Assembly: GCF_001592735.1 (NCBI RefSeq)
Contig: NZ_LUKE01000005.1
Coordinates: 1-64,000 of the forward strand
Direction: 5' to 3'
DNA from: Bdellovibrio bacteriovorus
GTDB lineage: Bacteria > Bdellovibrionota > Bdellovibrionia > Bdellovibrionales > Bdellovibrionaceae
DNA: 64,000 nt
Under the pieces are notes generated by a model. The model was given only the letters and a program-made list of their open reading frames with translations, was not told the DNA's origin and did not search any database. The position numbers and the translations under genes were made by a program. Shown here in pieces: positions 8,692 through 21,361 of this stretch (position 1 is the first letter of the stretch; the number at the start of each line of letters is the position of its first letter).

Positions 8692-9516
8692 GTGATGAAA
8701 AATAACAAGGGCTTTTCACTTATAGAGATCATGGTATCTCTGCCAATTGCTTTAACTGTTCTGGGTGCCGTTGGCGCAGCCATCATCGCTTTTTATTCCA
8801 TGTCGTCACGGACTAAGGAAAATATCAGCACCGATCAAGAATTGAACTTAATGCTGAACAGCTTGCGAACAGCGGCTCGTTTGGGAATCAACGTTCGTTG
8901 GGCGAATACGTCAGGTGGTGGTTTGCGCAACACCGGATCCCAACCTTCGGGCGGTGAAGGCTATGTTTTGAACAACTTCACCTATTCTCAATTTACTCAT
9001 CTGAATGGTCCCGCTCCTCTGATGTATTTTAATCGCGAAACGGCACAGTCCGGCACCTCCGCCCCGCGCGCCACGGCTTTATTTTTTGTTCCGCCAACGG
9101 CAAATACTCCCGGACAGTTGCAACTGACATTAGCCAATACGGCCGGTGCCCTGACTTTAAGTCCTTGCCTAGCCACCGGCCCTTGTACGGCCAACCCTCC
9201 ACCTTCGGTGATTCTTAATAACGTGGTGGGTGTGCGACTTTATGACAATCAAAATTCTCCTGTCTATCGCATGATGAACAGCGTGAAGCTGGGTATCACT
9301 GTGCGCAGTTTTATTGCGAACTCGGACAAACCCCGCCGATATTGCCCCCAAGCGGACTGGGCAGCCTCTTGCGCTGACGGCGGTCCTTACCGCGATTTCG
9401 AGCGCATCGTAGTTTTGCAATTTGATAACAACCGACAAGATTCGATGAATGCAGGATTTGATTTGCCCTATGGTGTTTACTTTTTTCGGCCCGCCGGGCC
9501 CCGCTGGTCGAATTAG
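8692..9516 (+). CDS. Type IV pilin-like minor (pseudo)pilin, PilW-like
   Basis: An exported pilin-fold protein of about 274 residues. The class III signal KGFSLIEIM gives cleavage between Gly and Phe by prepilin peptidase, with Glu at mature position 5, followed by a hydrophobic helix. The remainder is Ser/Thr/Asn/Gly-rich with paired Cys residues, as in PilW-type minor pilins that prime pilus assembly. The start is GTG at 8692 or, one codon later, ATG at 8695; no strong ribosome site separates them. It heads an operon of three pilin-like genes followed by membrane and redox genes. Its stop overlaps the Shine-Dalgarno of the next gene. Confidence 0.85.
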   Translation: MMKNNKGFSLIEIMVSLPIALTVLGAVGAAIIAFYSMSSRTKENISTDQELNLMLNSLRTAARLGINVRWANTSGGGLRNTGSQPSGGEGYVLNNFTYSQFTHLNGPAPLMYFNRETAQSGTSAPRATALFFVPPTANTPGQLQLTLANTAGALTLSPCLATGPCTANPPPSVILNNVVGVRLYDNQNSPVYRMMNSVKLGITVRSFIANSDKPRRYCPQADWAASCADGGPYRDFERIVVLQFDNNRQDSMNAGFDLPYGVYFFRPAGPRWSN

Positions 9517-9528
9517 GAGGGGCGCAGA

Positions 9529-10143
9529 ATGGGTGTGTTAGCTCCTTTAATAGCTTTGATCGTCGGAATAACATTGATGGCTAATGTGTCTGATTTCTTT
9601 GTTTCTTCGCGAGAAACTTCAAAGCAAAACTTTATGGCCATGACAAAATTAGATGTGGCGCGGGAAATGGGTCCTATCGTGCGTAATGCGTATGACATGC
9701 GTTTGCGAGGCGCCTGCCCATCGGGAACAACCGCAAGAAATTCCGTAGAAGGCATTCAACTTTGCTGGAGAACCTTAGACAACGGATGCATTCGCCCCAT
9801 GGATAAAACGATTTGTTTAGCCTCCGGGTTTGTATCACATCACTCTTCCCCTATCCCCTGGTATTTGAAATTTCTTGGCGTCGAAAACGCCTACGCTCAA
9901 CGTGCGGCTCCTTGGCCAACTTCTCCGCGCGGGGGAGTGGCTTCCGGGAACGGAGTTTGGGTGGGAGCCCCCATTCCGGGTCCCGCCGCCGCCGCAACGA
10001 CGTTTTCGCCTGTCTGCGGATCGGCCGGCACAGTTTGTATCACGATGGATTTCTGCTTAGGCGAAAAAGATATTAAGGTGAATGGCTGTGCCTCGACCAG
10101 TCCGATTTATATTCGCCAGACTTTTGCTATTTGGAATTTTTAG
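9529..10143 (+). CDS. Secreted or pilus-associated protein with N-terminal membrane helix, PilX-like position
   Basis: No family was recognised. The 204-residue protein starts directly with a hydrophobic helix (GVLAPLIALIVGITLMANV) that resembles the body of a pilin N terminus, but the prepilin peptidase leader and the G|F-x-x-x-E signature are absent. It has eight or so Cys residues, a Gly/Pro/Ala-rich middle, and a ...YAQRA sequence that is not a signal site given its position. The AGGAGGGG ribosome site overlapping the previous stop supports this start. Lying between two clear prepilins, it may be a minor pilin analogous to PilX; that is inference from position. Confidence 0.7.
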   Translation: MGVLAPLIALIVGITLMANVSDFFVSSRETSKQNFMAMTKLDVAREMGPIVRNAYDMRLRGACPSGTTARNSVEGIQLCWRTLDNGCIRPMDKTICLASGFVSHHSSPIPWYLKFLGVENAYAQRAAPWPTSPRGGVASGNGVWVGAPIPGPAAAATTFSPVCGSAGTVCITMDFCLGEKDIKVNGCASTSPIYIRQTFAIWNF

Positions 10144-10181
10144 TTTTTAATTTTTTGAAACGTTTAACTAAAGGACTTAAA

Positions 10182-11597
10182 ATGTCATCACAACAGCTCA
10201 GCAAAAAACAATCTGGGTTCTCGCTTGTAGAAATGTTGATTGGGTTGACGATTGTCGGAGGCGTCTTTGCCATCCTTTACAATTTCGGACGTATGAACGC
10301 TCAGCGCGTAAGTTCAGAGTCCATCACCGCCTGTGAACAAATCGCGCGATCATCCTTAGACAATTTAAGATCTTTTGGTCTTGAGAGAACCAGTGCCAAT
10401 ATCAATAGGGAAGCTAATCTCATCGGACCACCCGATGGTACTAAGGTAAACAGTACTGTCATTCGAACAGAAGATGCTTGGGGTGTCACGGATCCTTCCC
10501 GAATTCTGTTGGATCGCAATACGCCCCCAAATCAACCATCTACATCCAACTTTCATCTAAATACCATCGGGACCATGAGTACCCTGGCCAAGCTTTACTC
10601 TACCAATCCTACCTACTGCTCAGGAAGTGTTCCTTATCCTGGCAACCTTTTAGTACAAGGAGGAATCGCCAATGGTGGTAATGACCGTTTTCAATCTGTG
10701 AATACGACACTTAAGATTCAATCTTATCAACTTTCGACGGGACAAATCGGTTGCCATCCCTTTTACCCTGTCCCTGCTTCCGCGGACGCCAGCCCGACAG
10801 CAGGCGGCACGGTTCGACTTCCACCGGAAGCCTCGTCGGATTACGGATTCTGGGTGACCGTAAATACATCTTATGCTGAAGCGAATGGCAAAACCGGATC
10901 ATGTACGGCCTCTTCGCTCTTTCAGTATCCCGCCAAACGAAGACCCAGCAGTTCAAGTCCTTCAGGATTTATGACAGCCTCGGATCCCGGCGGGCCGGGT
11001 GTGTGTAAACCGACTATGACAGGCACAACCACAACAATCTATATGCCCGCCCAAAGTGAAGGCAAAGATTGGGTCATGGTTTGCCAAGATGCTTCTTATT
11101 CAAGTCCGTTATCAGGCCCATCTTGCTCAGGAAGGGTCAGTCAAGAGCCGTTTACGGTTGCTAACAATGCGTGGGTAGACTGCCGGCAGGTCACATTATG
11201 CAACGAGCCTGCGGCAAACAACTCTGTATGGGTGTCACCCAATGAAGTGAGAGTCTTCCATTCGAAATTAAAATGGGGCTGTCACCCAAGAATGAATGTC
11301 CGAGTTGTCGATTCCGCTCAAAACTTGGTCGGCAGTCAAATAACGATTACAGACCCCAACATAGATAGTTGGTGGTCTCAGGGACCTGGTTGCCACGGTC
11401 CAAACAGATGTGGACACACATGGTGTGACTCGGAGCCGTACTGTCCTCCAATTGACCCAACTCCTCCTTGCTCTGGTTGGTGGTGCGGTTGGTATGGCGG
11501 CGGTGATGGCGGCGGCTGGAGCGGCGGTGGCGGCGATGGTGGTGACGGCCACGATGGCGGTGACGGCAGCGGAGGCGGAAGTGACGGATGCGACTAG
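10182..11597 (+). CDS. Minor pilin with Cys/His/Trp/Gly-rich C-terminal tail
   Basis: A 471-residue prepilin. The start at ATG 10182 is chosen because an AAAGGA ribosome site lies about 8 bases before it; the frame is open further upstream but overlaps the previous gene. The class III signal is QSGFSLVEML, with Gly12|Phe13 as cleavage site and Glu17 as mature position 5, followed by the membrane helix. It is much longer than ordinary minor pilins. The last ~95 residues are unusual: dense in Cys, His and Trp (CHGPNRCGHTWC, CSGWWCGWYGGG) and then an almost pure Gly/Asp/Ser/His tail ending in Cys. The tail could bind metal, form disulfides or be an adhesive tip. The downstream hydroxylase gene starts inside its last 17 bases. 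Confidence 0.85.
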   Translation: MSSQQLSKKQSGFSLVEMLIGLTIVGGVFAILYNFGRMNAQRVSSESITACEQIARSSLDNLRSFGLERTSANINREANLIGPPDGTKVNSTVIRTEDAWGVTDPSRILLDRNTPPNQPSTSNFHLNTIGTMSTLAKLYSTNPTYCSGSVPYPGNLLVQGGIANGGNDRFQSVNTTLKIQSYQLSTGQIGCHPFYPVPASADASPTAGGTVRLPPEASSDYGFWVTVNTSYAEANGKTGSCTASSLFQYPAKRRPSSSSPSGFMTASDPGGPGVCKPTMTGTTTTIYMPAQSEGKDWVMVCQDASYSSPLSGPSCSGRVSQEPFTVANNAWVDCRQVTLCNEPAANNSVWVSPNEVRVFHSKLKWGCHPRMNVRVVDSAQNLVGSQITITDPNIDSWWSQGPGCHGPNRCGHTWCDSEPYCPPIDPTPPCSGWWCGWYGGGDGGGWSGGGGDGGDGHDGGDGSGGGSDGCD

Positions 11598-12708
11598 CGT
11601 CTTCCTCTCGTTTTTAGACTGGATTAAAAGCTCTGCTTTAATTCTTCCGACTCGCTTTTTGAGCGAGTCGGATTCGCTTTCATGGCGATGGTTTTTTTCG
11701 GCGTTTTTAATAGCCTCTTTAAGCACGCTGCTCTTTTCAAAAAATTTAAAAAGATCCTTACGTCGTCTTAAAGCCCATTTGTTTTCCAAGCGAGCGAAGG
11801 GTGAGCTTGCATTGGATTTAAAGTTTTTCGCTTTTAAATTTTTCTATGACCCCATCGAAATGATTTTTTACGGAATCTTTTTTGCGCATGCGACAGTGTG
11901 GGTGGAGCGCAGCCTGCGCTATCTCATGTACCCCCTTTTGCCTCAACCCCTGATCTTTTTTGATCCTGTTTTTGGGCCCATTGCTTATATCATCCTTCTG
12001 TTTTTACTAAACGATTTTGCTTTCTTTATCTTTCATTACCTTAGCCACAAGTATGCTTCGCTGTGGGATCTGCATGCCGTTCATCACCGCGCCCGGCACT
12101 TAAATCCTTTAACCAAATACCGGGTTCACCCCCTTTCCATGGTGATCAGCTTTTTTGTTAGCATTGCCGTGGTGGGCGTCACCCTGGGGATCGTAAAGTC
12201 GTTTGTTTATTTTCCGCGCTATTCAGCCAACGACACGACTCGTATGCTACAAAATATAATTCTTTTTAGTTTCGCCTGGAGTCACCTCCGCCACAGCGCT
12301 TATTGGATCTCTTTCGGTAAGTTCTTAAGTTACATTCTTATTAGCCCTGCCATGCACCAGATCCATCACAGTCGTAAGCCTGAACATCTCAATAAAAATT
12401 TTGGATCTGTTTTTGCCGTTTGGGATTATATCTTTGGGACTCTTTATATCCCCGTGAAAAAAGAAAAACTGTGGCTTGGCGAAAGCGCGCTGGTTCAAAA
12501 AGAACCTTGGACTTTTACCAAAGAAATGCTGGAACCTTTGCGTTCTGTCAAACGTCGTTGGATGCGGAAAGTTCCCTATCCACGACTCGCTTTTGCAGTT
12601 ACTATTCTTTTCTTGATGGCTTCTTTGCTTTCCATGCGTTATTTCGATCACAACATGGGAACTGAGTCACGGGTCTCAACAAGGGTTTCCAACGCTGACA
12701 CTGATTAA
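11581..12708 (+). CDS. Fatty acid hydroxylase / sterol desaturase superfamily membrane protein (copy 1)
   Basis: A di-iron, integral-membrane oxygenase-family protein. Histidine clusters are visible in order: HYLSH, HAVHH, HLRH and MHQIHH, the pattern that holds the two iron atoms in this superfamily. The frame is open back to 11410, but I place the start at GTG 11581: GGAGG lies 5 bases upstream, and the resulting 375-residue protein lines up end to end with the paralogue at 18715-19797 (both have LLFSKxxKRSxRRLKAHL near residue 45-62). The substrate is unknown; lipid tail or head-group modification is plausible. It overlaps the last 17 bases of the Cys/Gly-rich pilin gene and precedes a CxxC protein. 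Confidence 0.87.
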   Translation: MTDATSVFLSFLDWIKSSALILPTRFLSESDSLSWRWFFSAFLIASLSTLLFSKNLKRSLRRLKAHLFSKRAKGELALDLKFFAFKFFYDPIEMIFYGIFFAHATVWVERSLRYLMYPLLPQPLIFFDPVFGPIAYIILLFLLNDFAFFIFHYLSHKYASLWDLHAVHHRARHLNPLTKYRVHPLSMVISFFVSIAVVGVTLGIVKSFVYFPRYSANDTTRMLQNIILFSFAWSHLRHSAYWISFGKFLSYILISPAMHQIHHSRKPEHLNKNFGSVFAVWDYIFGTLYIPVKKEKLWLGESALVQKEPWTFTKEMLEPLRSVKRRWMRKVPYPRLAFAVTILFLMASLLSMRYFDHNMGTESRVSTRVSNADTD

Positions 12709-12723
12709 AAGGAATTTATCAAT

Positions 12724-13200
12724 ATGAAAGCAACTTGTATCACCTTCTTGGTATTCACTTTAGTTTCTTTATCCTCGCACGCTCGAACGAATTATCTTTT
12801 TCAATCCCTCAATGATCTTGATAAGTATATAGTTACTCCGCGAGATTTAAAGGGCACCGCTTTGATCATCAGTATCCCAGAGCCCTGCAATTCTTGCGAA
12901 TCGCTTAAACCTTTCCTTAATGATTATATCGCTGATGAAAATAGACCCCGTGCCGAACTCATCATCGCGGTGGGAGCTCCCCTGTGGCGTAAAGCAAAAG
13001 ACATGATTGACAAAGCCACCTGGCTTACGGCCACTGAAAAACAAATGACCTACAATGACCCGAATGCCCGTTTCCGCAAGACGGTGGGAGGGAATGACAT
13101 CCGCGTCGTCTTAATGGAAAGAGACGGATCCGTGAAGAAAAGTGCCTCGTTCGATATCAAAACCCGTTACAAAGATTTCGTTGCCCAAGGAGACAAATAA
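12724..13200 (+). CDS. Secreted CxxC protein, possibly thioredoxin-like
   Basis: A 158-residue protein with an N-terminal signal peptide (to about residue 20, SSHA). A single redox-type motif CNSC sits at residues 55-58 after a hydrophobic beta strand (GTALIISIPEP), as in thioredoxin folds, but the usual following cis-Pro region is not clear. No defined family was recognised. It lies 15 bases after the hydroxylase gene and 2 bases before the rhodanese-like gene, so the three are probably one transcript. A periplasmic thiol role, perhaps related to the Cys-rich pilin tail, is only inference. Confidence 0.75.
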   Translation: MKATCITFLVFTLVSLSSHARTNYLFQSLNDLDKYIVTPRDLKGTALIISIPEPCNSCESLKPFLNDYIADENRPRAELIIAVGAPLWRKAKDMIDKATWLTATEKQMTYNDPNARFRKTVGGNDIRVVLMERDGSVKKSASFDIKTRYKDFVAQGDK

Positions 13201-13202
13201 AG

Positions 13203-14528
13203 ATGCGCCGCTTGATTATTTTCTTCAGCTTGAGTTTCAGCCTTGCCTCTTATGCGCAGAACTGCAAAAGCATTTCTCAGGTTCAAGTGCCGGGCGCTTT
13301 TTTAGAGGAATTTTTTAAACCCTCCCAAAATAATAAAAAATATTTTTTCACTCTTCCGGAATCCTATTGCTCTCAAGTCGGAAAAAGAATTCAGCTTATG
13401 GATCCTTACGGAAATGAAGCGGGCACGTTCACGGTGCGGCAGCAATGGACAGGAAAATACAACCTAGACACGCTGTCAAACTCTCCACGCGAATCATTGC
13501 CGGTAATGTACCAAGAGTTCTTAAAATCAAAAATATTGGATGACACTTCTTTGACAACGCTGATGCGCCTTAGCTTTGATCCGGATTTTTCCCTGGAAAA
13601 ATCTAGCGTGCACCTTTTAGAGGGCGGCTTTGTCGTCAACGATCGCTACACGCTAAACTGGAATATTAAGACGGAGCCTCTCTCACTAAAAACTGTAAAA
13701 AAAATCGACTATGAGGGCGTAGTTGATTTGCTCGGATCGTCCTTAGTCATTGATGCGCTTCCGGATTCCCCCTCGCGACCTAAAAACAACTGGAAAATTC
13801 CCACCGCCATCGCTTCCCCGCTTCCGCCCCGTTTTCCTTGTGGGCTTAGCAATTGGCGGGAAATTCTTTCTTTAAGTCAAAGTATCAAATTTGAAAAATA
13901 CCAAGACAAAAAAAATCAGCCGGTGATTGTATACTCCTCGTATCTTGAGCCTTCCTGCGCCATAAATACCATCGTTTATTTGCAGCTGCAGGGTTTTAAA
14001 GATGTCCGTTGGTTTGAACTTGCTGCCAGAGAATGGCAATACGGTGCGGAAAAAGCGCGCCAAGATCAAATGAAACCAGATATCAAGCAAATCAACGGTG
14101 CCGAGATTCTAAAAATGAAATCCTCCCCCGACGTAGCGATTATAGACGTAAGAAGCGAAGACCTCTACAAACAAGGACACATCCCGGGCGCCTTTAATAA
14201 TCAATTCATCCTGGTGAATGTGTCAGATTTCAATAAGCAAACCAAAGCGACCCCGTGGGCGAAAAGCATGGTGAACCAAAAGATGGAGACGGCCGGTATC
14301 TTTAAGACTACGTTTGAAAAAATGTTGTCGGATAAAATGACGACCGTGATTTTTTACACCCAGACGTTTTTACCTACGGACTTTGTGGGTGTGGCCAAGC
14401 AACTTCACCGTCACCATAAGATGCCTGAAAAACTCAAAGTTTACTTTTACCAAGGTGGTATGGCCGAGTGGATCGGAGCGGCAGAGTGGCAGCCCGATCT
14501 CTACAAGATAGAGTCTAAATCCAACTAG
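13203..14528 (+). CDS. Secreted protein with two rhodanese-like domains
   Basis: A 441-residue protein with a signal peptide (cleavage near ASYAQ, residue 18). After a novel N-terminal region there are two rhodanese-like domains: a degenerate one at about 165-285 (QPVIVYSSYLEPSC, with Cys252) and a clearer one at about 295-425 (VAIIDVRSEDLYKQGHIPGA). In the second domain the active-site loop reads FYTQTFLPTDF, with no catalytic Cys. Sulfur transfer by the second domain is therefore unlikely; binding or regulation is more plausible. It is the last gene of the pilin-hydroxylase operon, and its stop overlaps by 4 bases the stop of the convergent PQQ-propeller gene. Confidence 0.82.
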   Translation: MRRLIIFFSLSFSLASYAQNCKSISQVQVPGAFLEEFFKPSQNNKKYFFTLPESYCSQVGKRIQLMDPYGNEAGTFTVRQQWTGKYNLDTLSNSPRESLPVMYQEFLKSKILDDTSLTTLMRLSFDPDFSLEKSSVHLLEGGFVVNDRYTLNWNIKTEPLSLKTVKKIDYEGVVDLLGSSLVIDALPDSPSRPKNNWKIPTAIASPLPPRFPCGLSNWREILSLSQSIKFEKYQDKKNQPVIVYSSYLEPSCAINTIVYLQLQGFKDVRWFELAAREWQYGAEKARQDQMKPDIKQINGAEILKMKSSPDVAIIDVRSEDLYKQGHIPGAFNNQFILVNVSDFNKQTKATPWAKSMVNQKMETAGIFKTTFEKMLSDKMTTVIFYTQTFLPTDFVGVAKQLHRHHKMPEKLKVYFYQGGMAEWIGAAEWQPDLYKIESKSN

Positions 14529-15814
14529 GGACTTTCTAACACAAAAGTCCCGCCCCTCTCGGGGATGAGATAAACTTTCCCCTCATGGGGAACGACTTCA
14601 CCAGAAAGTCTTCCGGGTAAATCCCAAGTTTTAATTCTTTTAAAGGTTTCTGAATCAAAAACACAAAGGCGGGTGTCATCACACCCCGTCCACACCAAAA
14701 ACTTGTTCTTACGACCTTTGTCTTTCGTTATAATCGGCGAAGCCTTTCTGGCCCCCCGAGTGTATTCTTTTTCTTCACAGACCAAATCTTGTTGCGGGCT
14801 TAACGTGAATCGACAAAGCCCCCGGCTGCTATTGATAAAACCGTATTTACCGTCGGGCGTAATGGCGATGCTGGACTGATTGGGAATTTGGATTTCTTTT
14901 CTCCAGAGCACAGTTCCGGTAGCGACATCCAGGGCATAAACATGGCTATCCCAAGTCGATAGATAAGCGATTTCGTTATGAATGCTGGCCGTAGATTTCA
15001 TCGGCTTCCCGATATAAAGCCGCCATGCCGTTTTGCCATCGGTTTCACGGATGCCGTTGACGTAGCCCGCATTATCCCCGACCACTATGATCTTTGTTCC
15101 CTGATATTCCTTGGCCGACAACGAAGGCGACGAATGGCTGTGATCCCCCAGCCATGCCGATCTCCAAATGACTTTTCCTGTGTTGGCCTCAATCTTCGCG
15201 ATAAAACCATTGGGTGCATTCGTTTCAACGCTGATCAGAACATATCCATCATCCGTAATCAAAGGTGATGCACCAAAGGTATCCCCCAACTGCAAAATCC
15301 AGGACAGCTGGCCATTATTTTTGTCTAATCCCAGCATAAGCCCGGAATAATCACCGGCAATAATTAGATCTCCCCAGGCCGCGGGCGTGCCGTGAAATCC
15401 GTAGGCGGAAGTAAAGTTGCGCAAGTTCCATTTCACATTTCCCTGCAAATCCACCGAACGGAGCAAACCCGCGTCGGTCGCAATCACCACCTGATCGTCC
15501 AAGACCAACGGACTTGATTTACTCGCCTGGTGAACAGAGATATTTGTAGCGTCATTAAGTTTTCTAAGCTTAAGGGAGGTTGAAATTTCAAGATCAAAAA
15601 AACCCGTTCGTTGAACGTTATGACGATAAAATGTTTTTGGCGCAGCCACGTCCGGATTTAGTTTTTTTAAAATCACACTGGGTCCGACCTGTGGGATTTG
15701 TTGAAAATACGGTCGCTCCGTCCACCATGTCGCCCCTTGGTTGCCCGATAGGACCAACAAGCCGAAGCTTGAGGCTAAAACAAAAAAGCCGTAAATACTA
15801 AAAAACCGAAGCAT
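14525..15814 (-). CDS. PQQ-type beta-propeller repeat protein
   Basis: A 429-residue protein with an N-terminal hydrophobic signal or anchor (FFVLASSFGLLVLSG). It has repeated PQQ-propeller blades with the motif G-x-x-x-W near the strand ends: GNVKWNL, GQLSWIL, GKVIWRS, GKTAWRL, GTVLWRK. Such propellers are either quinoprotein dehydrogenases or non-enzymatic scaffolds such as BamB. Catalytic quinoprotein residues are not evident, so a scaffold or binding role in the periplasm is more likely. It is the last gene of a minus-strand cluster; its start overlaps the HTTM-like gene upstream by 17 bases. Confidence 0.85.
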   Translation of the reverse strand: MLRFFSIYGFFVLASSFGLLVLSGNQGATWWTERPYFQQIPQVGPSVILKKLNPDVAAPKTFYRHNVQRTGFFDLEISTSLKLRKLNDATNISVHQASKSSPLVLDDQVVIATDAGLLRSVDLQGNVKWNLRNFTSAYGFHGTPAAWGDLIIAGDYSGLMLGLDKNNGQLSWILQLGDTFGASPLITDDGYVLISVETNAPNGFIAKIEANTGKVIWRSAWLGDHSHSSPSLSAKEYQGTKIIVVGDNAGYVNGIRETDGKTAWRLYIGKPMKSTASIHNEIAYLSTWDSHVYALDVATGTVLWRKEIQIPNQSSIAITPDGKYGFINSSRGLCRFTLSPQQDLVCEEKEYTRGARKASPIITKDKGRKNKFLVWTGCDDTRLCVFDSETFKRIKTWDLPGRLSGEVVPHEGKVYLIPERGGTFVLESP

Positions 15815-16958
15815 ACGAATCCTGACAGAAATCAGTGGTGTTTCTTATGATGCGAAATTCGCTGTCCGTCGAGCGTCGGGAATAAAGAATAAATCCCAGC
15901 TTCTGGTCCGCATTTAGATTTTCACAATAACGTCTTAACTGCGACTCAAACGAACCAGGATCACAGCGCGTGCGCATGGCATTGGACTGTGAGGTCTCGA
16001 CAAAGTAAGTAGAAGAGTTTTTAGGATCCTGCACATAAACCAAGGGATAACACACCGGACGGGCGTCCAACATATTGACGCGTAATCCGCGAAAATGACC
16101 TTCCAGCGCGGGATCGCGTCCCCAGAAAAAGGGGTACGAGTTAAAGATCAAAAATGCGACTAGAACCGAAGCCGTCACCGGCGAAATTTCTTTTAGAATC
16201 TCTCGGTCATATTTCTTCCAAAGACTCATGGCATAAGGTGCTAAAGCCAGAAACATCATCACCGGATAAAAATATCCAACGATGTGCCAAGAAAACAAAT
16301 GAAACAAAAACAACTGCAATAAGGTCACAATCCGCAAAGGAAGACTTTTTGAAAGCAATCCCCATACCAAAATCAGCTCAAGAATAACGACATACGCCAG
16401 GGCCCAAGCCAGCCACTTGCCCTGAAGTATAATACTGGGAACCAGAAGTGCAGCCCCGCTCAGCCATTCGTTATTGAGCTTCAATGTCCCGGCAAGAAAG
16501 TAAAACATCGCCAACACTAAAAAATAAGAAACGCGTTTTTTGGGTAGGAAAAATAAGGCCCCTACCAAAAAGAATTGAATCAGATGGTAATTCCCCATCA
16601 AATTAAATCGACTTAAAAAAAGCCCCAGCTTAACTGCGGTTACTAAGAGCAACAAACCCAAAGCAAATCGGCGAAAGCGAGGAATTAAAATAAGAATCAA
16701 GGCGCTCGACGCAACAAAGGCGTAAGAATAAAGGATTCCGCGAGCGAGGTCCGAAGAAAACTTGATGGTCTGCGCGCAGGAAGGAAAAAATCCGTGGCAC
16801 ATAGCATGGCCATTTGTGTCGGGAAAGGCTTTCATAAAATTCGGAGAATGCCAAAAATACGCCGTCACCAAGTGCATCACGATCAAACAGACCGAGGCCA
16901 CCCAAAGAACGGGATCATGAAGGATCTCGTCAGTTGTTTTTTTCCACCAATTTTTCAT
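15798..16958 (-). CDS. HTTM-like multi-pass membrane protein with soluble C-terminal domain
   Basis: A 386-residue membrane protein with about seven or eight hydrophobic helices up to residue ~275, then a soluble Cys-containing tail of about 110 residues. The helices around NYHLIQFFLVGALFFLPKKR and FYFLAGTLKLNNEWLSGAALL resemble HTTM proteins, the bacterial relatives of vitamin-K-dependent gamma-carboxylase. The nearby gene at 19897 is a clearer HTTM protein whose soluble partner is a separate gene, so this one may be a fusion of the two parts. Bacterial HTTM function is largely unknown. It overlaps the pentapeptide gene by 29 bases and the propeller gene by 17, indicating tight coupling. Confidence 0.72.
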   Translation of the reverse strand: MKNWWKKTTDEILHDPVLWVASVCLIVMHLVTAYFWHSPNFMKAFPDTNGHAMCHGFFPSCAQTIKFSSDLARGILYSYAFVASSALILILIPRFRRFALGLLLLVTAVKLGLFLSRFNLMGNYHLIQFFLVGALFFLPKKRVSYFLVLAMFYFLAGTLKLNNEWLSGAALLVPSIILQGKWLAWALAYVVILELILVWGLLSKSLPLRIVTLLQLFLFHLFSWHIVGYFYPVMMFLALAPYAMSLWKKYDREILKEISPVTASVLVAFLIFNSYPFFWGRDPALEGHFRGLRVNMLDARPVCYPLVYVQDPKNSSTYFVETSQSNAMRTRCDPGSFESQLRRYCENLNADQKLGFILYSRRSTDSEFRIIRNTTDFCQDSYASVF

Positions 16959-17526
16959 CGCTGATCATCCCCAACTCGTGTGCCGTACTGATAGAAAAAG
17001 GTAATTTTGTTTTTGAATCAAATCTAGCTCCACGAAATGTGGTGCCTAAAACCCAACTGTTCTTAAGATTCGCGCCTCTTAAATCCGCTGACGAAAAATC
17101 ACAGAAGCTTAGATCCGTTTCTCTCAAGTCTGCTTTTTGAAAGGATGAAGAAACAAATCGGGCTCGATAAAACTTGCTGCCGCGTAAATCCGCATGGTCA
17201 AAGATGGAGCGGGAAAAATTGCTGTCTTTCCCGCGGAAACCCCTCATATTCACCCAGGTAAAATTTGAGTCCATAGCTAAGCCTGACCACAGTTCAGCCT
17301 CTTTCAGCTCTGCGCCTTTTAAATTTTTCTTTTTTAAAGTTCCGGGAATGCGCATCTTATAAAAGGTGCTAAAACTTAAGTCGTCCGGCAATTCTTTAAC
17401 TTGCAAACGTCCTTGAATTTCATAATTCACGCAAGCCCCTTTGGATTTATCCCCTTCACACAGATAAGAATCCGCTCCTGCAGTTGCGGCTAAACCCATA
17501 GAAAGGACCAGAATCAGCAATCGCAT
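16930..17526 (-). CDS. Secreted pentapeptide-repeat protein
   Basis: A 198-residue protein with a signal peptide (LVLSMGLAATAGA, cleavage near residue 18). From about residue 70 to 175 it has A(D/N)LxX-type pentapeptide repeats (DHADLRGSKFYRARF, FQKADLRETDLSFCDF, SSADLRGANLKNS) that should form a right-handed quadrilateral beta-helix. It has no enzymatic residues; such helices act as scaffolds or DNA mimics, and export makes DNA mimicry unlikely here. It lies one base downstream of the Tat propeller gene and overlaps the HTTM-like gene. Confidence 0.87.
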   Translation of the reverse strand: MRLLILVLSMGLAATAGADSYLCEGDKSKGACVNYEIQGRLQVKELPDDLSFSTFYKMRIPGTLKKKNLKGAELKEAELWSGLAMDSNFTWVNMRGFRGKDSNFSRSIFDHADLRGSKFYRARFVSSSFQKADLRETDLSFCDFSSADLRGANLKNSWVLGTTFRGARFDSKTKLPFSISTAHELGMISDEKLVEKNN

Positions 17527-17527
17527 C

Positions 17528-18655
17528 TTAAGCCTTTTTTAAAGAACCAAAGGGGTATAAGTGAATGGAATAAAAATCACTCTTAGATGAACCTAAGCTT
17601 TTTATTTCTTCAAAACTTTGAATATCAAAAAACTTTTGAGTTCCTTTGTCTTCTCCGTCTCGATAGTAAGACACCGAAAGGACTCGTCGACCCTCAACGT
17701 CAATTTCAACCATGGATCGCGGACGTTCTTTAACATCAATGGATTTAATCACTTCAAAACTCGATTTATCGACGACCAGAATTCGATCCGAGATCGTCAA
17801 GGTCAACCAAATACGGTGATTGGCTTCATCCACAAAGGCGTTGAGGGTTTCCCCTTTCAAGGTGAGGCCCCAGTTTGCAGAAACCACTTCCATTATTTCT
17901 TTTCCCGGACGGTAAACTGAAAAAGAGATATTTTCATCCTCAGTTCTTTTTTGGTTATCCGCCCCAGTAAAATAAATTTCGCCATTGGGCTGCTGCCAAA
18001 TATGCCCTGGCGCGTATCCAGGTTTATCCAAAAAAATTTGTCGTTCTAATTTTCCGGTAGCTAACGATATCCAAGAGACATTCGCCTCATTTTTTCGCGT
18101 GCCCGCATTCACGATTAAAAATTGATCCGGGTTTTTTAAGTCCACCTGCAAGTCGTGAGGGCGATAACCGTGCGAATCAATTTGCTGCAACACTTGCATC
18201 GAAATGCTGTCATAAACAAGAATCACACCTTCTCGATTTTTTTTCTGCGCGGTGATATAAATCAATGAACCATCCGCCGAAAAAAAACCATGTCCATAAA
18301 ACCGGGTTCCTTCAGGTGATTGAACGATCCGCGGGTGCATGTGTTCATTCTGCACGTCAATAACAGCTCCCAATAAGCCATCTTTTTCAATGGCCATAAG
18401 CTGCCATGGCCTTGCCTTATTCTGCCACACGGAATGCGCCTTTAAGGGTATGGTCCAGCTCCGCAAAAGCTCTGCTTTTGCGGAAATAAGACCGACTCTT
18501 CCCAGCTTGTCCACGCGACGATCGTAATCTCCGATGATGAACTTCGCATCGATAGGCTCTTGCAGGGATGGCTCCACCCAGCGCCACAGTGCAAAGGTCC
18601 CCACACCCACGGCAGAGATGGTCAAAAATTTTCGGCGTGAAATGGCTATAGACAT
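17528..18655 (-). CDS. Tat-exported beta-propeller protein, DUF1513-like
   Basis: A protein of 375 residues with a twin-arginine signal (SRRKFLTISAVG) and blades typical of seven-bladed propellers (GLLGAVIDVQNEH, GHGFFSADGSLIYIT, YRPHDLQVD, APGHIWQQPNGEIYFTG). This layout matches DUF1513-type proteins, found elsewhere beside iron-uptake lipoproteins; no such gene is seen here. I choose ATG 18655 because AAGGTAGGT precedes it and the Tat motif then lies at the N terminus; an upstream ATG at 18682 is possible. Tat export suggests folding, perhaps with a cofactor, before translocation. It is translationally linked to the pentapeptide gene. Confidence 0.78.
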   Translation of the reverse strand: MSIAISRRKFLTISAVGVGTFALWRWVEPSLQEPIDAKFIIGDYDRRVDKLGRVGLISAKAELLRSWTIPLKAHSVWQNKARPWQLMAIEKDGLLGAVIDVQNEHMHPRIVQSPEGTRFYGHGFFSADGSLIYITAQKKNREGVILVYDSISMQVLQQIDSHGYRPHDLQVDLKNPDQFLIVNAGTRKNEANVSWISLATGKLERQIFLDKPGYAPGHIWQQPNGEIYFTGADNQKRTEDENISFSVYRPGKEIMEVVSANWGLTLKGETLNAFVDEANHRIWLTLTISDRILVVDKSSFEVIKSIDVKERPRSMVEIDVEGRRVLSVSYYRDGEDKGTQKFFDIQSFEEIKSLGSSKSDFYSIHLYPFGSLKKA

Positions 18656-18714
18656 ATGACCTACCTTAACATACTTGAGCACTGAGTGACCCGTTCACCT
18701 AGACCTTAAACTGA

Positions 18715-19797
18715 TTAAAATGCGTAAACTTTTAAAGCGCAGCTTGCCAGCATTAAGACCAATGTAAGACAAAGAACTAAGCGCCAACCATAACGAGGCT
18801 CTTTGGCTCGCACCCACGCACCAAAACCAGGTAAAGATTCGACCGCTTTTACGACGGGCGTTTTAAACTCTCCCCACAGGGTTTTCTTTTCGTGTTTTGC
18901 TTCAGCGGACTCACCAAATTGCAGGGCTTCTTTTTTTTCTGGAACGTACAGTGTTCCAAACATTAAATCCCAAATGGCAAACATGCTTCCCAGATTTTTC
19001 CCTTGATGCTGAGGAGCATAGCTATGATGGATTTGGTGCATCGCGGGGCTCACCAGAACTCGACTTAAAACCGGCCCATAGGAAATCCAATAGTGACTGT
19101 GGCGGATGTGCCCAAAGATAAAATGGGCGCCAAAAGCGACCGCTAAATAACCAAAGTCATATCCCGGAGTCGAACCTTGAATGGAAAAAAAGGCGTTAAA
19201 TACACCCATCATGAACGCGCCCATCGTGAATGAAAAAGCATTGTTAATCAAATTATCAAAGGGATGGGTGCGATATTTTAATAGTGGTGTTAAGTACGTC
19301 GAGCGATGATGAACAGAGTGCAAATGCCAAAAAAAGTTCACCTGATGTTGGATTCGATGACTCCAATAATAAGCCAGATCATAAAATAACAAGACCCATA
19401 ACGCTTTGAACGCATATGCCGGAACCCCATGGAGCACAATAGCATGAGCTTCCGTAAGATATCGCGTTAGACCCAACCCGTGCCAACGAGCAACGCTTGA
19501 AATCCAAATAAAAATGGGCGTTAAAAAAACAATCTTCAAAGGTTGGTATAAGATTTTAAGGATAAAGAACTGAACATCTAAATGAGCTTCACTGCGCGCG
19601 CGTCGCGAGCGTAAATGAGCTTTTAAACGTCGCCATGAGCGTTTTTTACTTTTTGAAAAAAGCAGGGTCAGAAGAACAACCGCCAGCAGATTCCAGGCAA
19701 ACCACTGCCAATGAAGCAGATCCTCCAAATTGGAAAATCCCCCCGGGAAATCAGAGAAATTTTGGATGTATTCATCGACCCAGTTTTTTATCATCAT
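18715..19797 (-). CDS. Fatty acid hydroxylase / sterol desaturase superfamily membrane protein (copy 2)
   Basis: A 360-residue paralogue of the protein at 11581-12708. It shares LLFSKSKKRSWRRLKAHL near the N terminus and all the metal-ligand histidine clusters: HRIQH, HLHSVHH, HIRHSHYW and MHQIHHS. The N-terminal start is uncertain: ATG codons at 19797 and 19794 and an in-frame TTG at 19806 are all close. I use 19797. It sits between the HTTM pair and the Tat propeller on the same strand. Two diverged copies within 8 kb, in operons facing each other, suggest related but distinct substrates. Confidence 0.88.
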   Translation of the reverse strand: MMIKNWVDEYIQNFSDFPGGFSNLEDLLHWQWFAWNLLAVVLLTLLFSKSKKRSWRRLKAHLRSRRARSEAHLDVQFFILKILYQPLKIVFLTPIFIWISSVARWHGLGLTRYLTEAHAIVLHGVPAYAFKALWVLLFYDLAYYWSHRIQHQVNFFWHLHSVHHRSTYLTPLLKYRTHPFDNLINNAFSFTMGAFMMGVFNAFFSIQGSTPGYDFGYLAVAFGAHFIFGHIRHSHYWISYGPVLSRVLVSPAMHQIHHSYAPQHQGKNLGSMFAIWDLMFGTLYVPEKKEALQFGESAEAKHEKKTLWGEFKTPVVKAVESLPGFGAWVRAKEPRYGWRLVLCLTLVLMLASCALKVYAF

Positions 19798-19896
19798 CGC
19801 GCCCAATACTTTATTGTACTGCGATGCCGAGTGCGAGTAAACAGCCGTCCCGAACAGTCCTGTTTCAAAATGAGATCAGGAAATTTTGCCGAGCGA

Positions 19897-20805
19897 TCAC
19901 TGTCCCGAATTAACACATGAGCTAGACTTCGTCTTCCGCCCTTCGATAAAACTTAAAAGTCCCGCGACCATCACCCACTGAAATATATTGATCACCATCG
20001 TCGCTTCAAGAGCCAAATGAAAGCAGATGGCCAAAGCTAATAACCAATACCTTAAGCGAGGAATCCAGATTAAAACCGCCAGCACTCCTTCAATGATCAA
20101 AGTTCCATAGGTTGCCAGATTGATTAGAATTCCAGAACTTACTAAAAATTCAAATTGAGTCCTAAAATAAGGCGGCAATCGGGTGGCATAGTAAACGGCC
20201 GTCCCCGCTCGCCAGTTTGGCCCGTCCAATTTATATATGAACGTGGAAAAATAAAGAATGCTCATCTGAAACTGCATGGCTCTCACGGCCCAGGCATTTT
20301 TAATAAGCTGCTCTTGCCAAAGATTTTTGAATGACCGCGTCTTAAGATACGCGCCCACTGATGCCACCCTATCTGCCGGAACGAAGATCATAAAAAACAT
20401 CAGATTCGCCGCAAGATTATGGCCGGAATCAAAAACTAAATAATTCCGCAATGTAAAATAATTTAGAATAATCCAAACAGTAAACGCAGACACGCGGTAA
20501 AGCGAACCCAACGTGAACAACAAAATACCACAAATGAATAAGGCATAAACGAAGTCCAATCCTATAGGTGACAGCGCAAAAACATCACCCGAAATACCAA
20601 AAAATTTAAGCAGCGTCGGAAAAGATCTTTCACTGCCCGCTGGCCCGAAAACGCCCCCTTCACCAAACATGGCATGACGTTCGGGCAAGTAAGAAAGCGC
20701 ATCGTAAAGAAGGGCCAGACCTAAAATAATGCGGGTTCCGGCCATAGCTCGGGCTGAGGCCGTCATAAACCAAAAACCTGTAAGAGATCTTAGCTTAAGG
20801 CTCAT
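19897..20805 (-). CDS. HTTM domain membrane protein
   Basis: A 302-residue protein with about seven membrane helices. Family features include the N-terminal ARAMAGTRIILGLALLYDAL, LRNYLVFDSGHNLAANLMFFMIF near residue 120-142 and QMSILYFSTFIYKLDGPNWRAGTAVYY near 183-209, all typical of HTTM proteins related to vitamin-K-dependent gamma-carboxylase. Catalysis by the bacterial members is not established. Its start overlaps by 11 bases the stop of the upstream gene, whose product has the MFAPxP motif seen next to HTTM proteins. The pair probably works as one membrane complex. Confidence 0.87.
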   Translation of the reverse strand: MSLKLRSLTGFWFMTASARAMAGTRIILGLALLYDALSYLPERHAMFGEGGVFGPAGSERSFPTLLKFFGISGDVFALSPIGLDFVYALFICGILLFTLGSLYRVSAFTVWIILNYFTLRNYLVFDSGHNLAANLMFFMIFVPADRVASVGAYLKTRSFKNLWQEQLIKNAWAVRAMQFQMSILYFSTFIYKLDGPNWRAGTAVYYATRLPPYFRTQFEFLVSSGILINLATYGTLIIEGVLAVLIWIPRLRYWLLALAICFHLALEATMVINIFQWVMVAGLLSFIEGRKTKSSSCVNSGQ

Positions 20806-21361
20806 AGGTTTTACTAAATCCTATGACTTCTGTGGGTGGCAACCGCCTCATGTCCTGTAACGTTAAGATGCCTTCATTAATATTAGGAATTCGACCTTCC
20901 TGCCACACGAGTTCGGCCCGCAATATTTTTTCACCTGAAATACTTTTTCTCTTCGTTACTAAAGCATCCAAAAAATTCTCGCAATTGGTACGGCAATCTG
21001 TTTCGCCCCAAAGACGAATATAAAATAGAGCCCACAACGTTTGATCGACGCCTTTAAAAAAGCCGTGCTCACGGAGGCTGTAAAAATCAAATATTTTTTG
21101 CTCTGAAAACTGATGGCTTGAAACATTGCTATAAAAACGCGCCGTCAAAACCACGGGATATTCACGACGGGGGCCCGGGGCAAACATACTCCACTGCGTT
21201 TTCCACCCCAGGGTTTGAAATCCTCGACGAACGGAGTGGACCGGTTGAACCTCGCGCAGTCCGGGTATCGTGGCCAAAAAATAAAACAGCGTGATCAACG
21301 TCATTAAAATCGCAGCAAGCATTTTTAATTTCGTCTCACGCTGTTTCACATCGGTCTTCAT
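20795..21361 (-). CDS. HTTM-associated membrane-anchored protein with WSMFAPGP motif
   Basis: A 188-residue protein with one N-terminal membrane helix (about residues 13-32) and a soluble domain carrying the sequence TQWSMFAPGPRREYPV near residue 55-70. A W-x-MFAPxP motif followed by an aromatic and basic stretch is typical of small proteins encoded beside HTTM membrane proteins. Two Cys lie close together (ETDCRTNCENF). It overlaps the HTTM gene by 11 bases. The domain probably sits outside the inner membrane and binds the HTTM protein; function is unknown. Confidence 0.75.
   Translation of the reverse strand: MKTDVKQRETKLKMLAAILMTLITLFYFLATIPGLREVQPVHSVRRGFQTLGWKTQWSMFAPGPRREYPVVLTARFYSNVSSHQFSEQKIFDFYSLREHGFFKGVDQTLWALFYIRLWGETDCRTNCENFLDALVTKRKSISGEKILRAELVWQEGRIPNINEGILTLQDMRRLPPTEVIGFSKTYEP

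What the first reader, a model, noticed from the sequence alone, without database searches (positions are those of the whole stretch)
8692..21361. Two facing operons, each with a hydroxylase paralogue, built around pilins, HTTM proteins and propellers
A plus-strand operon (three pilin-like genes, hydroxylase copy 1, CxxC protein, double rhodanese) ends with a 4-base overlap against a minus-strand cluster (MFAPxP protein, HTTM protein, hydroxylase copy 2, Tat propeller, pentapeptide protein, HTTM-like fusion, PQQ propeller). Gene overlaps of 4-29 bases show strong coupling. Known facts: di-iron hydroxylase-family proteins act on lipids, HTTM proteins relate to gamma-carboxylase. Inference: together they may make and export a modified envelope lipid or surface structure, with minor pilins and redox proteins as the delivery part. 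I know of no such combination described.
Basis: partly seen in the sequence, partly recalled or inferred. Interest (0 to 1): 0.72.

Follow-up and report, generated by a model that had tools for sequence, protein, structure and literature searches.

The report
Carboxylase-like enzyme beside tail-tagged pilins
In predatory Bdellovibrio and its relatives, a previously unnamed membrane protein that folds like the human vitamin-K blood-clotting carboxylase sits, with a beta-propeller and a pentapeptide-repeat protein, next to pilins and prey-adhesion fibres whose ends carry a peculiar glycine/aspartate tail, which suggests a dedicated system that modifies those surface proteins.

Summary
The stated theme (paired hydroxylases making an envelope lipid) is not supported: both hydroxylases lack close relatives in the order, and relatives' hydroxylase genes have no such neighbours.

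The conserved heart is three minus-strand genes: a pentapeptide-repeat protein, a 386-aa membrane protein with no Pfam match, and a BamB-type propeller. The order recurs across Bdellovibrionales, and the last two are fused in five genera. The 386-aa protein is modelled confidently (pLDDT 89). Its only convincing structural matches are human gamma-glutamyl carboxylase (GGCX), Z 18 over 343 residues; the GGCX base Lys218, Trp223 and Asn159 align with conserved residues.

Next to it, in eight genera, lie unrelated secreted proteins (pilins, adhesion fibres, Ig-like proteins) with Gly/Asp(/Cys)-rich C-termini; here it is the third pilin. Strictly defined, such tails occur in 0 of 720 control proteins and 0 of 69 pilins elsewhere. 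All nine genomes tested encode menaquinone synthesis (MenD) and VKOR.

Best explanation: a menaquinone-dependent, GGCX-like enzyme module that modifies the tails of surface fibres. The homology is well supported, the tail link is statistical, and the chemistry is inferred.

The parts
8692..9516 (+). pilin-like gene 1 (N_methyl signal)
   Evidence: PF07963 E 7e-5
9529..10143 (+). secreted or pilin-like gene 2, hydrophobic N-terminus, no N_methyl match
10131..11597 (+). pilin-like gene 3, 488 aa, proposed substrate
   Evidence: PF07963 E 2e-5; Gly/Asp tail
11490..11597 (+). Gly/Asp-rich C-terminal tail of pilin 3 (GGGDGGGWSGGGGDGGDGHDGGDGSGGGSDGCD), mixed codons
   Evidence: the only GDGGDG site in the genome
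11646..11672 (+). 12-bp hairpin behind pilin 3, possible transcript end or attenuator
   Evidence: best of 18 terminator-like sites; total number is not above shuffles
11599..12708 (+). fatty-acid-hydroxylase-family gene, copy 1; start uncertain, frame open from 11410; local addition, not core
   Evidence: PF04116 E 7e-23
12724..13200 (+). secreted CxxC protein, possibly thioredoxin-like
   Evidence: no Pfam match; a thioredoxin sits in the equivalent place in L181
13203..14528 (+). secreted rhodanese-fold protein; relatives beside the module in G005 and G035
   Evidence: PF00581 E 1e-15
14525..15814 (-). core: membrane-anchored 8-bladed BamB-like propeller with NxxxHxASKSSP motif and invariant Cys pair
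   Evidence: next to or fused to the GGCX-like gene in 51 of 71 copies
15798..16958 (-). core: GGCX-fold integral membrane protein, 386 aa, no Pfam match; N123, K160, W165, F219, H220 align with GGCX N159, K218, W223, F286, H287
16930..17526 (-). core: secreted pentapeptide-repeat protein
   Evidence: PF00805 E 2e-17; directly precedes the GGCX-like gene in 38 of 71 copies
17528..18682 (-). recurrent accessory: Tat-exported DUF1513 propeller
   Evidence: PF07433 E 3e-15; also near the module in G005, G057, G216
18715..19806 (-). fatty-acid-hydroxylase-family gene, copy 2; local addition, not core
   Evidence: PF04116 E 1e-22
19897..20805 (-). HTTM/SdpB-like protein; separate common gene pair with the next
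   Evidence: PF05090 E 1e-14, TIGR04033 below its cut-off
20795..21361 (-). MFAPxP protein, partner of HTTM (SdpA-like position)

Best explanation
The locus is a surface-fibre gene set (pilins) with its own protein-modification module. The core is a secreted pentapeptide-repeat protein, a GGCX-fold integral membrane enzyme and a membrane-anchored BamB-like propeller. I propose that the enzyme uses menaquinol and O2 (and probably CO2), with Lys160 as the base corresponding to GGCX Lys218. It would modify acidic residues in the Gly/Asp(/Cys)-rich C-terminal tail of the neighbouring secreted fibre protein: pilin 3 here, an adhesion fibre (MAT) or an Ig-like protein in relatives. The propeller and the pentapeptide protein would recognise or hold the tail. 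Shown: the genes, their conserved order, the fusions, the predicted GGCX fold, alignment of key catalytic residues, and tail enrichment. Inferred: that the enzyme is active, that the tails are its substrates, and that the chemistry is of the GGCX type. The hydroxylases and the MFAP-HTTM pair are local additions.
For: GGCX fold: model pLDDT 89; top 16 PDB hits all GGCX; Z 18.0, rmsd 4.1, 343 residues, next unrelated Z 7.6; profile alignment P 1.6e-5 local with K160=K218, W165=W223, N123=N159 (roles from PMC12589487). Module: propeller follows or is fused in 51 of 71 copies, pentapeptide gene precedes in 38 of 71; five genera have the fusion. Tails: strict 11/456 near, 0/277 further out, 0/720 controls; pilins 5/19 near versus 0/69 elsewhere (P 3e-4); seven new tailed loci appeared in loci fetched after the pattern was noticed; MAT tail CDGDGDGF identical in ten genomes with varying codons. 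Cofactor: MenD and VKOR in 9/9 genomes.
Against: No biochemical evidence. About half of the copies have no tailed neighbour, including the family-f4 copies, which also lack the pentapeptide gene. The conserved His125 is one residue off GGCX His160, and active-site geometry was not inspected in coordinates. A shared fold does not prove activity. Many tailed MAT cases are orthologous, so independent cases are about eight genera. In the window pilin 3 lies on the opposite strand, five genes away.
Confidence: 0.5

Rival explanations
1. The GGCX-fold protein acts on the tailed proteins but not by GGCX-type chemistry: it processes, anchors or helps export them, as SdpA/SdpB are needed for the SDP peptide. 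The tail would be a sorting signal that is cut, cross-linked or retained.
For: HTTM proteins sit in peptide gene clusters (SdpB match; crdG in a linaridin cluster, PMC9927463). Tails contain recurrent Cys and sit at the extreme C-terminus. Fibre and pilin partners are surface proteins.
Against: No protease or transpeptidase motif was found in the core; residues for quinol chemistry are conserved.
Confidence: 0.27
2. The tails are passive linkers or calcium-binding ends typical of fibre and pilin operons, and the module serves the same operons in another way (for example fibre assembly); the two are linked only because both go with surface fibres.
For: DGDGDG resembles calcium-binding repeats; tails vary in length and pattern; several module loci have no tail.
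Against: 69 pilins elsewhere in eight genomes have no strict tail; the tailed hosts near the module are of unrelated families; MAT genes with DGDGDGF at the end were found only next to the module.
Confidence: 0.15
3. One reading: two hydroxylases with HTTM proteins make and export a modified envelope lipid, with minor pilins as the delivery part.
For: Both hydroxylases are intact, resemble the ornithine-lipid hydroxylase OlsE weakly (far below its cut-off), and are embedded in the cluster.
Against: 13 of 23 same-genus genomes have no match; 29 relatives' hydroxylase loci lack the core genes; the core recurs without hydroxylases.
Confidence: 0.05

Closest known systems
Vitamin K-dependent gamma-glutamyl carboxylase (GGCX, human)
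   Same: Fold over residues 58-502 of GGCX including part of the lumenal domain; Lys base, Trp, Asn and Phe-His positions align; acts on secreted proteins at the non-cytoplasmic face
   Different: About 13% identity; lacks the C-terminal third of GGCX and instead has a propeller next to it or fused; conserved Cys residues; no propeptide known; tails are rich in Asp and Gly, not Glu
HTTM / SdpB family (PF05090, TIGR04033)
   Same: Related membrane core with the same K...W motif; often beside secreted peptides or repetitive proteins
   Different: The 386-aa protein has no Pfam HTTM match and an extra C-terminal domain; the window's own HTTM gene is a separate family
C-terminal tag systems (PEP-CTERM/exosortase, GlyGly-CTERM/rhombosortase)
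   Same: Unrelated secreted proteins share a short C-terminal tag encoded next to a membrane protein
   Different: No hydrophobic helix or basic cluster follows the tag; the membrane protein is not protease-like (comparison from general knowledge)
BamB / YxaL / quinoprotein-type propellers
   Same: Eight-bladed propeller fold, Z 34-43 to such chains
   Different: Own conserved motif NxxxHxASKSSP and Cys pair; fused to a GGCX-like domain in five genera
Bdellovibrio mosaic adhesive trimer (MAT) fibres
   Same: A MAT-like gene ending CDGDGDGF lies directly before a pentapeptide/GGCX-like pair in ten Bdellovibrio genomes
   Different: The window has pilins, not a MAT, in this role

Membership tests
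GGCX (gamma-glutamyl carboxylase) | GGCX fold across membrane and part of lumenal domain | tested here: met
   Foldseek top 16, Z 18.0 over 343 residues
GGCX (gamma-glutamyl carboxylase) | Catalytic Lys218 and quinone/Glu pocket residues | tested here: met
   K160, W165, N123, F219, H220 align; K160 in at least 90% of 25 sequences, N123 and W165 in all
GGCX (gamma-glutamyl carboxylase) | His160 of the Glu pocket | tested here: inconclusive
   conserved His125 is one position off in the alignment
GGCX (gamma-glutamyl carboxylase) | menaquinone supply and quinone-epoxide reductase family in the genome | tested here: met
   MenD 9/9, VKOR 9/9; VKOR may serve disulfide formation instead
GGCX (gamma-glutamyl carboxylase) | carboxylase/epoxidase activity on Glu | not testable with these tools
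   needs biochemistry
HTTM (PF05090) | match to the Pfam model for the 386-aa protein | tested here: not met
   no Pfam hit up to E 1; only remote profile similarity to the HTTM alignment, P 0.0012
SdpB family (TIGR04033), window HTTM gene 19897-20805 | score above curated cut-off | tested here: not met
   41 bits against 178
   1 of 29 hydroxylase loci has an HTTM-related neighbour (short flanks)
Quinoprotein (PQQ) dehydrogenase | PQQ-type propeller with catalytic ligands | tested here: inconclusive
   propeller fold matches BamB, YxaL and quinoproteins alike; ligand residues not checked

The most novel reading that the evidence does not exclude
A bacterial vitamin-K-type modification system: a GGCX-fold enzyme with a propeller and a pentapeptide partner carboxylates Asp-rich C-terminal tails of pilins and predation fibres, giving them calcium-binding tips.
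Probability: 0.2. Interest if true: 0.92.

Novelty: new variant of a known kind. Interest (0 to 1): 0.74.

Why it matters
Gamma-carboxylation is known chiefly as an animal modification, and what the bacterial relatives of the carboxylase do is open. A GGCX-fold family tied to a recognisable tail on named adhesion proteins makes that question directly testable. In B. bacteriovorus the tailed fibre next to the module is probably one already implicated in predation, so the module may bear on how the predator attaches to or enters prey.

Tried and rejected
Hydroxylase pair as the conserved core: rejected. PDB sequence search with the GGCX-like profile: nothing useful; the fold was needed. GDGGDG by itself as a genome-wide marker: too broad, since most sites lie inside other Gly-rich proteins; the C-terminal position is what matters. 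Futalosine menaquinone route: absent, while the MenD of the classical route is present. The genome-contig scan with one short motif found only 10 loci, all in Bdellovibrionota/Oligoflexia; distribution outside the phylum is therefore poorly tested. Literature searches found no paper joining Bdellovibrio and gamma-carboxylase and, for six guessed HD100 gene numbers around the locus, only Bd2872, within an open-access library only. Searches were wrong references.

Full report
The observation. Every gene named in the finding is present and the family labels are largely right. The plus-strand and minus-strand genes converge with a 4-base overlap, and same-strand overlaps of 11 to 29 bases are real. 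Corrections: the 386-aa 'HTTM-like fusion' (15798-16958) is not a fusion and matches no Pfam family. The second pilin has no pilin signature. A 12-bp hairpin follows pilin 3 (11646-11672) inside the upstream part of the hyd1 frame, so pilins and hyd1-CxxC-rhodanese may be separate units. The window's genome belongs to the genus of G015, whose contig length equals that of B. bacteriovorus strain kdesi, NZ_CP102930.1.

What is not conserved. The genome has four FA_hydroxylase genes. The two in the window are 41% identical to each other; in 60 related genomes the next best match is 40% over half the length, and 13 of the 23 same-genus genomes have no match to copy 2. Twenty-nine hydroxylase loci from relatives carry no GGCX-like, propeller, pentapeptide, rhodanese or DUF1513 gene; one has an HTTM-related neighbour and one a MAT-like neighbour (only about 1.5 kb of flank each side). 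The HTTM gene at 19897-20805 is one of a family present in 42 of 60 relatives, in the genus mostly right behind an MFAP gene. These are independent passengers or additions.

What is conserved. Homologues of the 386-aa protein occur in 57 of 369 genomes of the phylum, 28 of 182 genera, nearly all in one order. In 59 loci examined, 71 copies were found. Of these, 44 are directly followed on the same strand by the propeller gene and 7 are fused to it (five genera); 38 are directly preceded by the pentapeptide gene. The rhodanese protein has relatives beside the module in G005 and G035. DUF1513 propellers recur in G005, G057 and G216. In G193 a thioredoxin and a protein with a rhodanese-like IIDVR motif (no Pfam match) sit beside the GGCX-like gene. 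The window is thus one of several mosaics built on the same core.

The core protein is GGCX-like. An alignment of 25 members (A1) gave a confident model (pLDDT 89.0, pTM 0.89). The first 16 Foldseek hits in the PDB are all human GGCX. VIA-align gives Z 18.0 with rmsd 4.1 over 343 residues, model residues 10-386 on GGCX 58-502; the first unrelated chain has Z 7.6. The tool warns that helical bundles can reach Z 13 by common arrangement; the gap of ten units and the coverage of the extra-membrane part argue against that here. The window's HTTM family matches GGCX by sequence (E 6e-13). Profile comparison of A1 with HTTM plus GGCX gives P 1.6e-5 local and 3.6e-7 global. That alignment pairs K160 with K218 (the base), W165 with W223, N123 with N159 and F219-H220 with F286-H287; roles of K218, N159, H160, W223 and F286 are from PMC12589487. 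The conserved His125 is one position off His160. The genomes tested encode MenD and VKOR, so a naphthoquinol cofactor is plausible.

The propeller family has a conserved motif (NxGIHxASKSSP) and two invariant Cys. The fused G035 protein models as one confident unit (pLDDT 89.9, pTM 0.86), with an eight-bladed BamB/YxaL-type propeller.

The tails. Pilin 3 ends in a Gly/Asp-rich tail of about 35 residues. In the first set of loci I saw similar ends on unrelated proteins beside the module: a 1359-aa Ig-like protein, a pilin in G022, a 173-aa protein in G047, and MAT-like fibres ending CDGDGDGF. I then fetched 40 more loci and 40 control regions. New tails appeared in seven further loci (L152, L153, L155, L160, L179, L181, L185). 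Strict tails: 11 of 456 proteins within five genes, 0 of 277 further out in the same loci, 0 of 720 controls; relaxed: 22, 1 and 2 (the two control cases are acidic ends without the Gly/Asp pattern). Among pilins, 5 of 19 near the module have strict tails against 0 of 69 elsewhere in eight of these genomes (Fisher P 3e-4, and 7e-4 after removing near-duplicates). Among the DGDGDG sites inspected in 60 genomes, the only ones at the end of a long reading frame are ten MAT genes next to the module (about half of the 61 sites were inspected, and a short antisense-like frame was set aside). Their tail is identical in ten genomes while codons vary, so the protein sequence is selected. These ten are orthologous; independent cases number about eight genera.

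Link to predation. G006 is a single contig of 3,782,950 bp, which I recall as the length of B. bacteriovorus HD100. Its tailed MAT has 626 aa. [quoted passage not shown] The identification is an inference from length and position.

Mechanism. I propose that the GGCX-like enzyme modifies the tails, with propeller and pentapeptide protein for recognition. Homology is well supported (about 0.9). That the tails are its substrates is a statistical inference (about 0.6). Carboxylation of Asp is a guess from the fold and tail composition (about 0.2). Against: half of the copies have no tailed neighbour, including nearly all of family f4, so substrates may be encoded elsewhere or the enzyme may have other targets.

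Novelty. GGCX and HTTM proteins are known; MAT fibres are known. I found no description of this GGCX-like family, its module or the tail link in the library searched, which is not the whole literature. I rate it a new variant of a known kind.

Noticed in passing
L034, L036, L041, L042, L044, L045 (HTTM loci of relatives): MFAP-HTTM gene pairs, often two pairs back to back, lie beside secreted proteins with Gly/Asn-rich repeats (GGFVN, GGNGTKG); HTTM proteins may have their own repetitive partners.
   Followed up: no
L094:4743-7571, L179:2825-5638, L181:14141-16873: Large multi-pass membrane proteins of 910-942 aa with similar N-termini and no Pfam match lie near the module in three genera; they look like GT-C glycosyltransferases.
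   Followed up: partly
L094:16184-18517: Sulfatase/phosphoethanolamine-transferase-like membrane protein between the rhodanese and the DUF1513 propeller of G005.
   Followed up: no
L162-L184 (family f4): GGCX-like plus propeller pairs without pentapeptide gene, constantly next to a CDP-alcohol phosphatidyltransferase-like gene and housekeeping genes; no tails. Possibly a different function.
   Followed up: partly
window 11646-11672: Perfect hairpin TCCGACTCGCT-TTTT-GAGCGAGTCGGA right behind pilin 3 and inside the upstream part of the hyd1 frame.
   Followed up: partly
L108:12561-13216 (G056): Broken GGCX-like gene next to an intact propeller gene.
   Followed up: no
L161:4106-5278: Secreted 390-aa protein with Asn/Gln-rich start and a YYGYYGYYGYY repeat, two genes from the GGCX-like gene; a different low-complexity candidate partner.
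   Followed up: no
L179:6221-7291, L181:12074-13072, L153:2655-5576: Pilins near the module with long poly-Pro stretches just before the C-terminus, in L181 followed by DGDGDGGP.
   Followed up: no
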